Positions 14,341 to 21,427 of a DNA stretch of 36,752 nucleotides are shown here, in pieces. Source of the stretch: Microcaldota archaeon (GTDB taxonomy: Archaea; Micrarchaeota; Micrarchaeia; Micrarchaeales; CABMGC01); contig JAJZKP010000008.1 in assembly GCA_021804105.1 (NCBI GenBank), forward strand, positions 1-36,752, in the 5' to 3' direction. The number at the start of each line of letters is the position of its first letter. The stretch's first letter is position 1. Made by a program: the position numbers and the translations under genes. Under the pieces are notes generated by a model. It worked only from the letters and a program-made list of their open reading frames with translations, did not search any database and had not been told where the DNA came from.

Positions 14341-14348
14341 TATATATT
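14341..14348 (+). promoter_or_regulatory. TATA-like element upstream of the small-membrane-protein/ATPase module
   Basis: TATATATT about 36 nt upstream of GTG 14381. Confidence 0.4.
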
Positions 14349-14380: not shown

Positions 14381-14602
14381 GTGCGCAGTAAAGTCCGGCA
14401 AGGAATCTTGATGTTTTGGGTATCAGGGCTTGCCGAAGCCGCGATAAATGCAAGCGCAATAGCCTCAGCAGTTCTTATAGACGCCACAATAGTAAGCAGG
14501 CTGGCGGGAAGAACCAGGGAGGCAGACTTACTGGCAGCAAAAGGAATATCCTTGCTGGTCCTGCTGCTCATATCCGTATCCGTGAGAATGGTGATGGGAT
14601 GA
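14381..14602 (+). CDS. small membrane protein, pilin-subunit-like topology (two hydrophobic segments, charged loop)
   Basis: 73 aa: MRSKVRQGILMFWVSGLAEAAINASAIASAVLIDATIVSRLAGRTREADLLAAKGISLLVLLLISVSVRMVMG. GTG start after a TATA; stop overlaps the next ATG (ATGA). Confidence 0.65.
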   Translation: MRSKVRQGILMFWVSGLAEAAINASAIASAVLIDATIVSRLAGRTREADLLAAKGISLLVLLLISVSVRMVMG

Positions 14603-14874
14603 ACCTTGGCAGGAGCATATATGCAGGCTCTTCGCGCAGGAGGCATGTGCTCTTGGTGTCTTCCGTGATGGGAGTTGCGTCTTCTGTCTTGTCTGTGGGG
14701 CTCATCCTGGGTCTTGGCATAGTGATCCAGGCGCTTGCCGCAGCCTTGGCTGTTATACTGATTGCAGTAGTTTTATTGAAAGGAAGTAATATTGATAGGA
14801 TAGATCCTGCTCGTGTCTTCGCACTCGCTGCACTCAATGTGCTGATCCTGGCCCTGATAGTTATGCTTGGCTGA
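14599..14874 (+). CDS. small polytopic membrane protein
   Basis: MNLGRSIYAGSSRRRHVLLVSSVMGVASSVLSVGLILGLGIVIQALAAALAVILIAVVLLKGSNIDRIDPARVFALAALNVLILALIVMLG. Internal ATG of ORF-track entry 14416..14874; ATGA overlap upstream and 8-nt overlap with the ATPase downstream. Confidence 0.68.
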   Translation: MNLGRSIYAGSSRRRHVLLVSSVMGVASSVLSVGLILGLGIVIQALAAALAVILIAVVLLKGSNIDRIDPARVFALAALNVLILALIVMLG

Positions 14875-17086
14875 TTTTGTGGTATTTCGCACTTATGAGA
14901 TAGATTCACTTCCTACAGAGATAGACCTTGAAGCCTTCCTCGGGGCCATGCTCGGCTCTCAGTTCATGCTCTGCCATGATTTTAAGGAAGGCAGGACATA
15001 CGTAGCATTCGAGGATGCTGATACGTATGTACGCATCAAGCACGCAGTGGCAGGCATAATCATGCACGAAGCAGGCATTGCAGGGCGCAGGCTCAATCAC
15101 CCCCGCTATGCCGTAGGATATTCTGCTACGCGGGTAGACAGGGACGGGAAAGTTTTGGAGATTTTTAGGGATCTTTACGGTATACTTTCGCATTCAGGCG
15201 CAATGTTTCTCGTGTCATTTGTTCCGGCTTCTACCGGGCAGGTAGACGCTGCAAGGCTTAGGGTCGAGGAAATGGCCAGCGGGAAGAGCATAAGGCTTAC
15301 CAGGAACCTCGGAAGTAGGAATGGATCGCCATCTGCGACAGATTCGATGCAGATGGAGCTTTTCTACGAATCTGATGAGAGAAGAATGTTGCTCTCTCTC
15401 CTCGAGTCTTTGAATGCTGCATCGATGAGGAACGGGATTGCTTATAGGATAAGCATTATCTTTGAGAACAATGACCAGGTCAACGAGTATATTAAGGCAA
15501 GGCTTTTCGTTTTCGAGAATCGTGGGATAAATGTTGGCTCGGTGAATGACGCATATGAGTTTGCAAAGCATGCGGATGCGCTTCCGCTCTCCCATTCGTG
15601 TGCTGCAGGATATCTCTCTTTCTCGGACCGAATAGACAGGCATGGCACTATCGCGACAAGATATGGCGGAGGCAACGGCGGCAACATTGAATTAGGAGAG
15701 TACCTGCATGGATCGGTTACAGGAAGGGGCGAGACCCTGCGCTTGGATTATAGAACCTTCAACCTCGGGACCATAATATCCGGGCTCCCCGGAACTGGAA
15801 AGACCGCAACTGCAATGAACTTGATAAGACAGCTTTCCAGGGAATCGGATGCAAGTATAGTGGTGCTATCCCCGACTGGCGAGTGGAACGCTTTTGGAAG
15901 AAGGGCAGGCGCCAGGATAATCAGGCTGTATGACGAGACTGTTAGGCTGAATTTCTTTAAGTGCGATTCCGAAATAAACATCGAGCGATTTTACGAAAAC
16001 CTGGCCATGCTCATAGCCTCGGCATCCAATGCTGGCCCATATAGGAATTCGTTGGAGAAGAGCCTGCTTTCTGCATTCAGGAAGTCTTATGCGTTTACAG
16101 TATCTCCGGATCCAGCTGAGGTCTACGCGTGCATTGAGAATGCAGTAATAGAGCAGCATGGCAAGAGGAGCAATGTTGGTGTTAAACTCACAAAGCACGG
16201 AGAGAATGTAATGGCCGCGCTGCAGAACCTCAGGCTGCTGCTGATGAATCCGCAGTTTGCATATTGCGACGGGGAAGACTTCTTGGGCCTGCTGAAAGCG
16301 GGAGTAATATTTGACCTGTCGCTGGTTAGCAACAGCATGAAGCCGTTCTTCTATGCGCTGATACTGAATCAGGTATACAGTTTTGCCGATATGCTAGACA
16401 CCAACGGCAATGATGAGCTCAGGATGCTGCTGTGCATCGAGGAGGCACAGCTGATGCTAGACAAGGAGGGTGAATCGGCAGCGACCCTTGACCTCGAGCA
16501 GCGAATACAGGACTTCAGGAAAAAAGGAATAGGGCTGATGCTCATAGCGCACAGCGTAACTGACATAAGTCCAGGAATAAGGCGGCTCTGCCAGACAAAG
16601 GTATATTTTAGGCAAAGTGCAGACGTGGCTAAGTACGCATGCGGCGATCTTGTCTTCGGCGAAGAGGAAGCCAGGCTGGTTACTGACAAGTTGAAGAGCC
16701 TGCCCCAGAGGAGGTGTGCTGTTAGCTACATTGCCATAGAAGACGGTATGCGTATGCCAAAGGGATCGGTATTTGTAGAGGCAATGTTTTCCCAAAGCCC
16801 TGAAGAAGCACAGCCAGAGGTAAAGATGAGCAAAAGGCGTGCCAAGGCAACTGCAATAACAGTGACAGAAAACGCAGCCCCTAGAGCTGGTGCAGCAATA
16901 CGAATGATTTACGTTGGCGAAACGGTATTTGAAGGGATGACTGATGCAAGAGGACGCGTAGTTGCGGAAGGGCTTCTGGAAGGCAGGACGTACAAGATGC
17001 TTGTGCTTGGCGCAAAGAGAAGCGAGACCAGGGAATTCTCTATAATTGGAGGCGTTGACACGGAACTGAAATGCGCGGAACCTTAG
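14867..17086 (+). CDS. HerA/FtsK-superfamily (VirB4/CedB-like) ATPase with extra C-terminal beta-rich domain
   Basis: Walker A IISGLPGTGKTATAMNLI, Walker B MLLCIEEAQLML, DFRKKGIGLMLIAHSVTDISPGIRRLCQTKVYFRQ; large N-terminal domain; C-terminal GETVFEGMTDARGRVVAEGLLEGRTYKMLVLGAKRSETREFSI resembles carboxypeptidase-regulatory/Ig-like repeats. Confidence 0.85.
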   Translation: MADFVVFRTYEIDSLPTEIDLEAFLGAMLGSQFMLCHDFKEGRTYVAFEDADTYVRIKHAVAGIIMHEAGIAGRRLNHPRYAVGYSATRVDRDGKVLEIFRDLYGILSHSGAMFLVSFVPASTGQVDAARLRVEEMASGKSIRLTRNLGSRNGSPSATDSMQMELFYESDERRMLLSLLESLNAASMRNGIAYRISIIFENNDQVNEYIKARLFVFENRGINVGSVNDAYEFAKHADALPLSHSCAAGYLSFSDRIDRHGTIATRYGGGNGGNIELGEYLHGSVTGRGETLRLDYRTFNLGTIISGLPGTGKTATAMNLIRQLSRESDASIVVLSPTGEWNAFGRRAGARIIRLYDETVRLNFFKCDSEINIERFYENLAMLIASASNAGPYRNSLEKSLLSAFRKSYAFTVSPDPAEVYACIENAVIEQHGKRSNVGVKLTKHGENVMAALQNLRLLLMNPQFAYCDGEDFLGLLKAGVIFDLSLVSNSMKPFFYALILNQVYSFADMLDTNGNDELRMLLCIEEAQLMLDKEGESAATLDLEQRIQDFRKKGIGLMLIAHSVTDISPGIRRLCQTKVYFRQSADVAKYACGDLVFGEEEARLVTDKLKSLPQRRCAVSYIAIEDGMRMPKGSVFVEAMFSQSPEEAQPEVKMSKRRAKATAITVTENAAPRAGAAIRMIYVGETVFEGMTDARGRVVAEGLLEGRTYKMLVLGAKRSETREFSIIGGVDTELKCAEP

Positions 17087-18300
17087 CCATTGGCAAGCAA
17101 GGACTTCTGGTAGAGCGCCCTGCGCAGCAGGGAGCTGTTCTTTATCCATGAGCTAACAGGTATGTCCATCTTCGCAGATACAAACATCAGCGCCTGATGC
17201 AGGTTGTCAAGCGATACGGGCTCGGTCTTTAGCGTTGCCCTAACGTGCTCCCTTACATTCCACACACCTACAGGCATTATATAGCCGGGATGTGCCTCCC
17301 TGAGGATCACCACCTTGGCCTGGCCCTTCACCTTGTCCAGCAGTTCCGATGATGCAAGCCTTGCAGCGTAGTAGCATCCTCCGATCTCGGCGTACTTTGT
17401 CCTTCCTTCGAAGGGCTCGTATGAAGAATAAATGGCTATGTCTGGGTTGTTCTTATTCCAAGTGGTGTTTGGATACCACGCTTCCACCAGTTCATACTCC
17501 CAGGATCCGGGCAGCATCACTATTGCCCACCTATTGTCCAGTGCCTCGCTGTAGTATACCTTTACTGAGTCTATGGCTTCGTACTGCTTCACTTCCTTGA
17601 GCCGGTGCTTTCCCAAGGTATCGTCAACTGCGGTTATGCTCCAACGCGTAGGCACAAACTTCCTGCGCTTTGATGTTCCCAATATGCCCGCAGAGAGAGA
17701 CTTCTGGATCTTAGAGACCATTATGCCGCGCTCGTACAGCTCTATTATCGCATCCTTTGCAGGCAGAGCGGTATCACTGTACGCTTTCTCTATATGAGGA
17801 TTTGCCTTTATGTTGCCCAAGCTCATGTCCACCATCTTTGCGCTGGGCCCGTACGGTTGGCTGTTCTCGTCGAAGCTAACGCCGAGCTTTGGCCTGTGGA
17901 AGAGCTTCTCCTCCACGCCGCCATAATTGTCTGCCAGCGCAAGCTCCTTAAGCATCTCTTCTATCCTTCCATTGTCCGCTTTGGTTACTTTGGTACGGTA
18001 CATGCCGCGTATTAGCATGGAACGCATCTCTACTATCTTGGGTATTGACATGCCTATCCAACGTTCCGGCTCGCTCATTATTGAAGTGTCGCCGAATTGC
18101 GGAGGCACGAGAGGCCCGACATAGACGTTGGGATAGCCATGCCTTCCAACAAATATGTCCGGAGGTGAGGAGCCATAGACCTCATTGCTCTGCAACTTCT
18201 CGAGTGTCTTGAAGTTATAGTAGGCCTTAAGCATATACGGATTCTGCATGTTCTGGTAGACCTGATTTGTCCTCCGTATTGCGATGGTTTCTGCGGACAT
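17083..18300 (-). CDS. nreA: archaeal DNA repair protein NreA-like
   Basis: IFVGRHGYPNVYVGPLVPP, MRSMLIRGMYRTKV, KRRKFVPTRWSITAVDDTLGKHRLKEVKQYE, REAHPGYIMPVGVWNVREHVR are Nre-family signatures. Confidence 0.9.
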   Translation of the reverse strand: MSAETIAIRRTNQVYQNMQNPYMLKAYYNFKTLEKLQSNEVYGSSPPDIFVGRHGYPNVYVGPLVPPQFGDTSIMSEPERWIGMSIPKIVEMRSMLIRGMYRTKVTKADNGRIEEMLKELALADNYGGVEEKLFHRPKLGVSFDENSQPYGPSAKMVDMSLGNIKANPHIEKAYSDTALPAKDAIIELYERGIMVSKIQKSLSAGILGTSKRRKFVPTRWSITAVDDTLGKHRLKEVKQYEAIDSVKVYYSEALDNRWAIVMLPGSWEYELVEAWYPNTTWNKNNPDIAIYSSYEPFEGRTKYAEIGGCYYAARLASSELLDKVKGQAKVVILREAHPGYIMPVGVWNVREHVRATLKTEPVSLDNLHQALMFVSAKMDIPVSSWIKNSSLLRRALYQKSLLANG

Positions 18301-20395: not shown

Positions 20396-21427
20396 TTGGT
20401 GTACAGTATGAAAGAGTATAGCTACATAAAGAAGACCTTGCTGAGGGAGCTCAGCTCTGATTCCTCCTGTTCCATCACGGAGCTTGCCCACAGGATAAAG
20501 TGCTCAAGAAGTACAGTAATGAGTAATATGGAGTTTCTGGAAAGGGAATTTGGTATGCATTACACCATAGAGTTCAATAGAGAAGTCCTTGGGTTTGTAA
20601 AGAACCAGATAGTCTTAGTTAAGTTCGGGATAAAGCCAGAGAGAGAACAGGTAGAGGAGATCTTTGCTGGAAACAAGTTCCTGCCTTTTGTTGCAGAAAC
20701 GGTAGGTGATTTTGATATGCTTATAGGCATAGTGTATAATACTACAGACGAGTTCCTTCGTTGGAGAAGTAGGGCACTACACAAGCTACTCAGGTTCAGG
20801 CCGTCATTAAGGGCATCGTATGTTACAATGATCAATGCGGGTTTCCTGGCAATACCGAATGGGGTGCTGGAGAAGCTATCCTTGAACCTATTGGGACTTG
20901 ATTCGCTTGACACCAAGATAATACTGCAGCTAAATGAGAATGCACGGCTAACTAACATTAAAATAGCCGAGAAGCTCGAGGTAGATGTGGAGACTGTGCG
21001 ATACAGGATAAGGAAGATCCTTAAGACAAATCTCATAAGCAGATTCACGATAGTCCTGACAAAACCGCCTACACAATTCAATGTGGCGTTTGCGCTTGAC
21101 TACTCGCTTGGACCAAGCACTACTTCAGCATATTACAATAGCATGTCATATTACAAGAGCGTAGATGGAAAACTCCCAGTAGTGAACGCATTTCCATATC
21201 TTGCTGCGGTAAGTGGAAGGTATTACTTCTTCGGTATTGGCTGCTTCTATAGTGAGGAGGAGGCCGTGAGGAACGTGGTGCTAAAACACAAGGAGATCTT
21301 CAAAGATGACAACCTTGAGATGGCATATGCACGCATAACAAATGTTATATCTGGGTACCTTCCTATAAGAAACATGAACCAAGACAGAGGACTTACAGTA
21401 ATGGATATGGAGGGCCTCATTGGCTAA
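20396..21427 (+). CDS. Lrp/AsnC-like transcriptional regulator with two HTH-containing halves
   Basis: N-terminal ITELAHRIKCSRSTVMSNMEFLE HTH and second LDSLDTKIILQLNENARLTNIKIAEKLEVDVETVRYRIRKILKTNLISRFTIVL (AsnC-type HTH). Start may be ATG 20408. Confidence 0.82.
   Translation: MVYSMKEYSYIKKTLLRELSSDSSCSITELAHRIKCSRSTVMSNMEFLEREFGMHYTIEFNREVLGFVKNQIVLVKFGIKPEREQVEEIFAGNKFLPFVAETVGDFDMLIGIVYNTTDEFLRWRSRALHKLLRFRPSLRASYVTMINAGFLAIPNGVLEKLSLNLLGLDSLDTKIILQLNENARLTNIKIAEKLEVDVETVRYRIRKILKTNLISRFTIVLTKPPTQFNVAFALDYSLGPSTTSAYYNSMSYYKSVDGKLPVVNAFPYLAAVSGRYYFFGIGCFYSEEEAVRNVVLKHKEIFKDDNLEMAYARITNVISGYLPIRNMNQDRGLTVMDMEGLIG

What the first reader, a model, noticed from the sequence alone, without database searches (positions are those of the whole stretch)
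14381..17086. Three-gene overlapping module: two tiny membrane proteins plus a VirB4/HerA-like ATPase, a candidate DNA-transfer or secretion/pilus system
Seen directly: a TATA element, a 73-aa two-hydrophobic-segment protein, an ATGA overlap, a 92-aa polytopic protein, an 8-nt overlap, then a 739-aa ATPase with Walker A GLPGTGKT and Walker B. The order small pilin-like, small membrane protein, large FtsK/HerA-superfamily ATPase mirrors virB2-virB3-virB4 of type IV secretion and is reminiscent of CedA1/CedA/CedB DNA import in Crenarchaeota (established systems). Inference: a minimal, undescribed Ced/T4SS-like apparatus in a DPANN archaeon, potentially for taking up DNA or contacting a host.
Basis: partly seen in the sequence, partly recalled or inferred. 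Interest (0 to 1): 0.8.

Follow-up and report, generated by a model that had tools for sequence, protein, structure and literature searches.

The report
Micrarchaeal DNA-transfer-type machine, detached part
Three overlapping genes in a tiny-genome archaeon (Micrarchaeota) are the detached last part of a conserved nine-gene operon that looks like a type IV secretion / DNA-import machine, a kind of system that we found described in other archaea but not in this lineage.

Summary
The trio is real and conserved: a ~63-73 aa two-helix membrane protein (G7), a 91 aa three-helix membrane protein (G8) and a 739 aa ATPase (G9). In most relatives it is the 3' end of one operon, G1-G9: a VirB2/TrbC-like pilin with a signal-peptide-like start, a ~350 aa polytopic (VirB6/CedA-like) protein, a two-helix protein in the place of the VirB4 N-terminal part, a VirB4/CedB-type motor, two accessory proteins, then the trio. 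The break point differs between species (inside G4, after G6, after G8), and G7/G8 stay with either side, so the parts form one system. G9's N-terminal domain matches only VirB4 (TrwK, R388) among solved structures. G9 forms a clade apart from HerA-like ATPases and from G4. A deeper relative carries G9 beside a PrgI-VirB4 protein. Most likely role: energising a chromosomal DNA-transfer (import/exchange) apparatus; cargo and direction untested. New variant of a known kind; no earlier description found in the papers searched.

The parts
14341..14347 (+). TATATAT promoter-like element upstream of the trio
   Evidence: Read directly; this element is identical in sister species G008
14411..14602 (+). 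G7: small two-helix membrane protein, 63 aa from ATG 14411 (73 aa if GTG 14381 is used)
   Evidence: Hydropathy; homologues at the same place mostly 55-73 aa; family recognisable by HMM; dN/dS 0.11
14599..14874 (+). G8: 91 aa membrane protein with about three hydrophobic segments, ATGA overlap with G7
   Evidence: dN/dS 0.53, fast evolving
14867..17086 (+). G9: 739 aa ATPase of VirB4 type, TTG start, 8-nt overlap with G8
   Evidence: Conserved in relatives; AlphaFold model pLDDT 87.6; Foldseek best hits VirB4/TrwK of R388
14867..15766 (+). G9 N-terminal domain (residues 1-300), VirB4-like
   Evidence: Model pLDDT 84.9; all 11 PDB hits with E<=0.001 are TrwK/VirB4 (R388 T4SS) chains, no HerA
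15782..15805 (+). G9 Walker A GLPGTGKT (residues 306-313)
16436..16450 (+). G9 Walker-B-like IEEAQ (residues 524-528; E526 invariant)
16850..17074 (+). G9 C-terminal beta domain (about residues 662-736), an addition after the motor
   Evidence: Model secondary structure: strands; conserved YLGE...D..G...GK.Y pattern

Best explanation
The trio is the distal module (G7-G8-G9) of a chromosomal, nine-gene type IV secretion/Ced-like system of Micrarchaeota. Shown: G1-G9 lie in one operon in most relatives, and G9 is a VirB4-type ATPase with a VirB4-like N-terminal domain. Inferred mechanism: G1 pilin subunits build a short filament on a membrane pore made by G2. G3 (two helices, in the place of the VirB4 N-terminal part) plus G4 (motor) make one VirB4/CedB-like ATPase that handles pilin and works at the pore. 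G9 is a second, full-length VirB4-type ATPase, held at the membrane by G8 and G7, acting as the companion or coupling motor (compare CedD beside CedB, or VirD4 beside VirB4) that moves the cargo. The cargo is most likely DNA, imported or exchanged between cells and used in homologous repair. In the window's species the distal module sits apart from the rest, which is missing from the incomplete assembly or lost.
For: Operon order G1-G9 found again across two families of the order. Break points differ (G4 | G4C-G5..G9 in G010/G036; G6 | G7-G9 in G006; G8 | G9 in G011/G027), with G7/G8 remaining on either side. G2 and G9 co-occur: 41 both, 4 and 5 single, 10 neither; Fisher p=2.7e-5, genomes not independent. 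G1 members match T4SS_pilin (20/30, best 4e-7) and TrbC/VirB2 (19/30). G4: best NCBIfam CedB 6e-13, Pfam AAA_10, TrwB, TraG. G9 N-terminal domain hits only VirB4 in the PDB; G9 is its own clade, SH-aLRT 100. In another family (G075) a G9 homologue lies downstream of a PrgI-VirB4 protein. No relative in viral contigs, no full-length plasmid match. Purifying selection on G7 and G9.
Against: G1, G2 and G4 are not in G000's assembly (74.6% complete) nor, for G1 and G2, in sister G008 (63%), so in this species the partner genes are unseen. G2 and G3 have no database homologue: their VirB6/CedA and VirB4-NTD roles rest on topology, gene order and kinship with the second system. G3 and G9-NTD are not similar by profile. 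Nothing shows that the cargo is DNA. Five relatives have G2 without a detected G9. The Foldseek TM-scores are low (about 0.3-0.4), so the VirB4 match rests on E-value and consistency.
Confidence: 0.7

Rival explanations
1. The same T4SS-like machine exports proteins or mediates contact with the host archaeon (an effector or attachment device of an epibiont), not DNA uptake.
For: Micrarchaeota are thought to be host-dependent (established knowledge); in nanohaloarchaea VirB4/TraG ATPases are proposed to deliver effectors to the host (PMC10266531); in f2 genomes the membrane protein before G7 has an Ig-like-looking ectodomain (sequence); no relaxase found.
Against: No effector or adhesin seen in the operon; archaeal conjugation plasmids lack recognisable relaxases as well (PMC12857230), so that absence is not informative; the closest archaeal systems (Ced, Ted) move DNA.
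Confidence: 0.25
2. G9 is a HerA-type DNA repair translocase and the small ORFs are incidental.
For: Motor domain is of the HerA/FtsK superfamily (DUF87 just over cut-off); HerA structures are high in the Foldseek list of the full model; the next gene is a convergent Nre repair gene.
Against: N-terminal domain hits only VirB4; separate clade from the HerA-like rows; overlap with conserved membrane genes; found with a T4SS operon; Nre is convergent, so not co-transcribed, and near G9 in only 38 of 102 loci.
Confidence: 0.04
3. In the window's species the rest of the operon is truly lost and the trio now serves the second T4SS-like system (system B) of the same genome, or is on its way out.
For: G1 and G2 of this system missing in both G000 and G008; system B (pilin-like on C16, several VirB6-like, VirB4 motor) is present in G000.
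Against: Both assemblies are incomplete (75%, 63%), chance of both missing one locus about 9%; the next relative G006 has the same split with G2-G6 elsewhere; G7 and G9 are under purifying selection.
Confidence: 0.25
4. The operon is a conjugative or integrative mobile element passing through.
For: T4SS components in general are typical of such elements.
Against: No relative among viral contigs, only short weak hits in plasmids, no PF03432 relaxase, same order in two families, conserved convergent Nre neighbour, gene tree separates the families except one row.
Confidence: 0.06

Closest known systems
Ced system of Sulfolobales (CedA, CedA1, CedA2, CedB, CedD)
   Same: Archaeal, chromosomal; pilin-like two-helix protein, polytopic protein, two HerA/VirB4-type ATPases; no relaxase; G4 best matches CedB
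   Different: One nine-gene operon; pilin has a signal-peptide-like start (as in TedC, not CedA1); one ATPase looks split (G3+G4) and the other is full-length VirB4-like with a C-terminal beta domain; extra genes G5-G8; scores far below the CedB/CedD cut-offs
Ted system of Thermoproteales (TedA, TedB, TedC)
   Same: Pilin with signal peptide next to a polytopic protein and a VirB4-like ATPase
   Different: Ted is described with one VirB4-like ATPase; no counterparts of G5-G8 named
VirB4/TrwK of bacterial T4SS (R388)
   Same: G9 model matches over N-terminal domain and motor
   Different: About 12% identity, added C-terminal beta domain, accompanied by small three-helix and two-helix proteins
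PrgI-VirB4 systems (MPF-FATA type) in monoderms and archaea
   Same: A distant G9 homologue stands beside a PrgI-VirB4 protein in G075
   Different: In the window's order the VirB4 partner appears split into G3 and G4

Membership tests
Type IV secretion / conjugation-like systems | VirB4-type ATPase | tested here: met
   G9 N-terminal domain and motor; G4 motor
Type IV secretion / conjugation-like systems | VirB2/TrbC-type pilin in the locus | tested here: met
   G1 in relatives: T4SS_pilin and TrbC hits in 20 and 19 of 30 members at E<=1; the one member whose table is shown is below the curated cut-off. Not found in the window's own assembly except the pilin-like gene of system B
Type IV secretion / conjugation-like systems | Polytopic VirB6/CedA channel protein | tested here: inconclusive
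   G2 has 6-8 hydrophobic segments and the right place, but no database homologue
Type IV secretion / conjugation-like systems | Moves DNA or protein between cells | not testable with these tools
   Needs experiment
Ced system | ATPase recognised as CedB or CedD by the curated model | tested here: not met
   G9: CedD 37 bits against cut-off 600; G4: CedB 48 bits against 700
Ced system | Two VirB4-like ATPases in the system | tested here: met
   G4 and G9 in one operon; joint use is inferred
Ced system | Induced by DNA damage, imports DNA | not testable with these tools
   Needs experiment
HerA (NurA-Mre11-Rad50 repair) | HerA-type N-terminal domain and grouping with HerA | tested here: not met
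   N-terminal domain finds no HerA; separate clade from HerA-like ATPases of the same genomes; no match over the curated HerA cut-off exists in these genomes, so the rows are HerA-like, not proven HerA
VirB2 pilin (claim for the 63-73 aa protein) | Homology to VirB2/CedA1/TedC pilins | tested here: inconclusive
   No Pfam or NCBIfam hit; weak profile similarity to G1, 20%; same two-helix hairpin
Conjugative mobile element | Relaxase or plasmid/viral context | tested here: not met
   (PF03432 only; archaeal conjugation plasmids lack known relaxases)

The most novel reading that the evidence does not exclude
Micrarchaeota carry their own class of DNA-exchange machine in which one VirB4 ATPase is split into two genes and a second full-length VirB4-type ATPase with private membrane partners (G7, G8) acts as the translocating motor: a two-motor, DPANN-specific relative of Ced/Ted that lets an epibiont with a minimal genome take up or swap DNA.
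Probability: 0.35. Interest if true: 0.75.

Novelty: new variant of a known kind. Interest (0 to 1): 0.6.

Why it matters
How ultra-small archaea gain genes, repair their genomes and touch their hosts is open. A conserved T4SS/Ced-like operon present in most genomes of one order gives named genes to test, and shows that a two-motor layout like CedB plus CedD occurs outside the Crenarchaeota.

Tried and rejected
Reading the 63-73 aa protein as the VirB2 pilin: set aside because G1 fits far better. Reading the trio as complete: set aside because relatives have six further operon genes. HerA: rejected on the N-terminal domain and the tree. Mobile element: no support in viral contigs, plasmids or relaxase search. 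CedD as best NCBIfam hit of G9: not used as evidence of membership, since the HerA-like control ATPases of the same genome also hit CedD. PDB sequence searches with G1, G2 and G3 profiles gave nothing significant. A single-sequence search for G5 in the own genome found nothing but is insensitive, since the G5 profile finds a relative in system B.

Full report
The window (contig C32 of an 805 kb, 74.6% complete assembly) contains a TATATAT element at 14341-14347, a GTG ORF of 73 codons ending at 14602, an ATGA overlap, an ORF of 91 aa (14599-14874) and, with an 8-nt overlap, a TTG-started ORF of 739 aa (14867-17086) with Walker A GLPGTGKT (residues 306-313) and a Walker-B-like IEEAQ. The first protein probably starts at ATG 14411 (63 aa): relatives are mostly 55-73 aa and AAGGA precedes that ATG. 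Between this species and its sister G008 the substitutions are of the coding kind: 17 of 24 changes in the first ORF fall on third codon positions; dN/dS is 0.11, 0.53 and 0.14 for the three genes. The middle gene is little constrained.

Who it is. A scan of genome contigs found 103 relatives of the ATPase, the 80 kept being MAGs titled Micrarchaeota or Micrarchaeaceae (a few Marsarchaeota). Of 116 genomes of the phylum sampled, 47 have it, all but two in two families of the window's order, the two others in another family of the class.

The larger system. In most relatives the three genes are the end of one operon, here called G1-G9: G1 about 125 aa, signal-peptide-like segment plus two hydrophobic helices; G2 about 350 aa with 6-8 hydrophobic segments; G3 about 240 aa, two N-terminal helices and a coiled-coil-rich soluble part; G4 about 375 aa P-loop ATPase; G5 about 225 aa soluble; G6 about 200 aa, one helix; G7, G8, G9 the trio. 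G1 members match Pfam T4SS_pilin (20 of 30, best 4e-7) and TrbC/VirB2 (19 of 30). G4 matches AAA_10, TrwB and TraG domains and, best in NCBIfam, CedB. G2 and G3 have no database match; they are related to proteins of a second T4SS-like locus of the same genomes, and their VirB6/CedA-like and VirB4-NTD-like roles are inferences from topology and place.

One system, several break points. In G006, the nearest relative with the same separate trio, G2-G6 are on one contig and G7-G9 on another. In G011 and G027 G1-G8 stand together and G9 lies elsewhere without G7/G8. In G010 and G036 the core G1-G4 is at one place and a separate C-terminal piece of G4 with G5-G9 at another. G7 and G8 thus stay with either half, which is hard to explain unless all belong together. 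G2 and G9 co-occur across 60 genomes (41 both, 4 G9 only, 5 G2 only, 10 neither; Fisher p=2.7e-5, phylogeny not corrected). In the window's genome and in sister G008 (63% complete) G1 and G2 of this system are missing, as is G4 in G000; incompleteness or loss cannot be told apart (about 9% that both would miss one locus that is present).

The ATPase. The AlphaFold model (pLDDT 87.6) has its best PDB matches in VirB4/TrwK of R388, with HerA close behind because the motors are of one superfamily. The N-terminal domain modelled alone (pLDDT 84.9) has eleven hits at E<=0.001, all from TrwK/VirB4 structures, none HerA; TM-scores are low. In a motor-domain tree G9 is one clade (SH-aLRT 100), apart from a clade of HerA-like ATPases and from G4 with the system-B motors (quick search, long branches). 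In a more distant relative (G075) the G9 homologue lies downstream of a protein with PrgI, TraC and TraG domains. G9 ends in a beta-strand domain that TrwK, from general knowledge, does not have.

What it does. Shown: gene order, co-occurrence, VirB4-type ATPases, VirB2-type pilin. Inferred: G3+G4 act as VirB4/CedB; G9, held by G8 and G7, is a companion motor as CedD is for CedB. CedD is needed for DNA import in Saccharolobus, and CedB/CedD are thought to replace VirB4 together (PMC11868833); Ced and Ted are homologous to conjugation machines (PMC9905601). DNA import or exchange is therefore the best guess for the cargo, ahead of protein delivery to the host. The convergent Nre repair gene next to G9, kept in 38 of 102 loci (some loci counted in two collections), marks an ancestral chromosomal location; being convergent it is weak evidence for a repair role.

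Known or new. No paper found in the searched library describes a T4SS-like operon in Micrarchaeota; nanohaloarchaea have VirB4/TraG proteins proposed for host contact (PMC10266531). Against Ced the defining model scores are not met, so it is not filed as Ced; it is a new variant of the T4SS/Ced/Ted kind.

Noticed in passing
G000:C3 (L076), G000:C8 (L078), G000:C16:28792-29034: A second T4SS-like locus in the same genome: four tandem VirB6-like proteins, two G3-like proteins, a 500 aa VirB4/CedB-like motor, a G5-like protein and a separate pilin-like gene; it occurs in most relatives, also those without the operon described here. C3 and C8 carry near-identical copies.
   Followed up: partly
L209:6920-15596 (G075): PrgI-VirB4 protein of 890 aa between a 314 aa membrane protein and a 1076 aa G9 homologue: a possible ancestral arrangement.
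   Followed up: partly
window 17083-18300: Archaeal Nre (DNA repair family) convergent with G9; the same neighbour, nearly always convergent, in many relatives of two families.
   Followed up: partly
L044, L047: The split-off module G4C-G5-G9 lies near an 1130 aa SMC-like gene; the C-terminal domain of G4 is there a 90 aa gene of its own.
   Followed up: no
L046, L073, L075, L009 downstream of G9: Small gene pairs that look like toxin-antitoxin (PIN-like) modules lie just downstream of G9 in several relatives.
   Followed up: no
L056, L059, L060 (f2 genomes): The gene in G6's place has a predicted ectodomain of Ig-like look between two helices, longer than G6 of the window's family.
   Followed up: no
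window 20396-21427: 343 aa protein with two AsnC/winged-helix matches.
   Followed up: no
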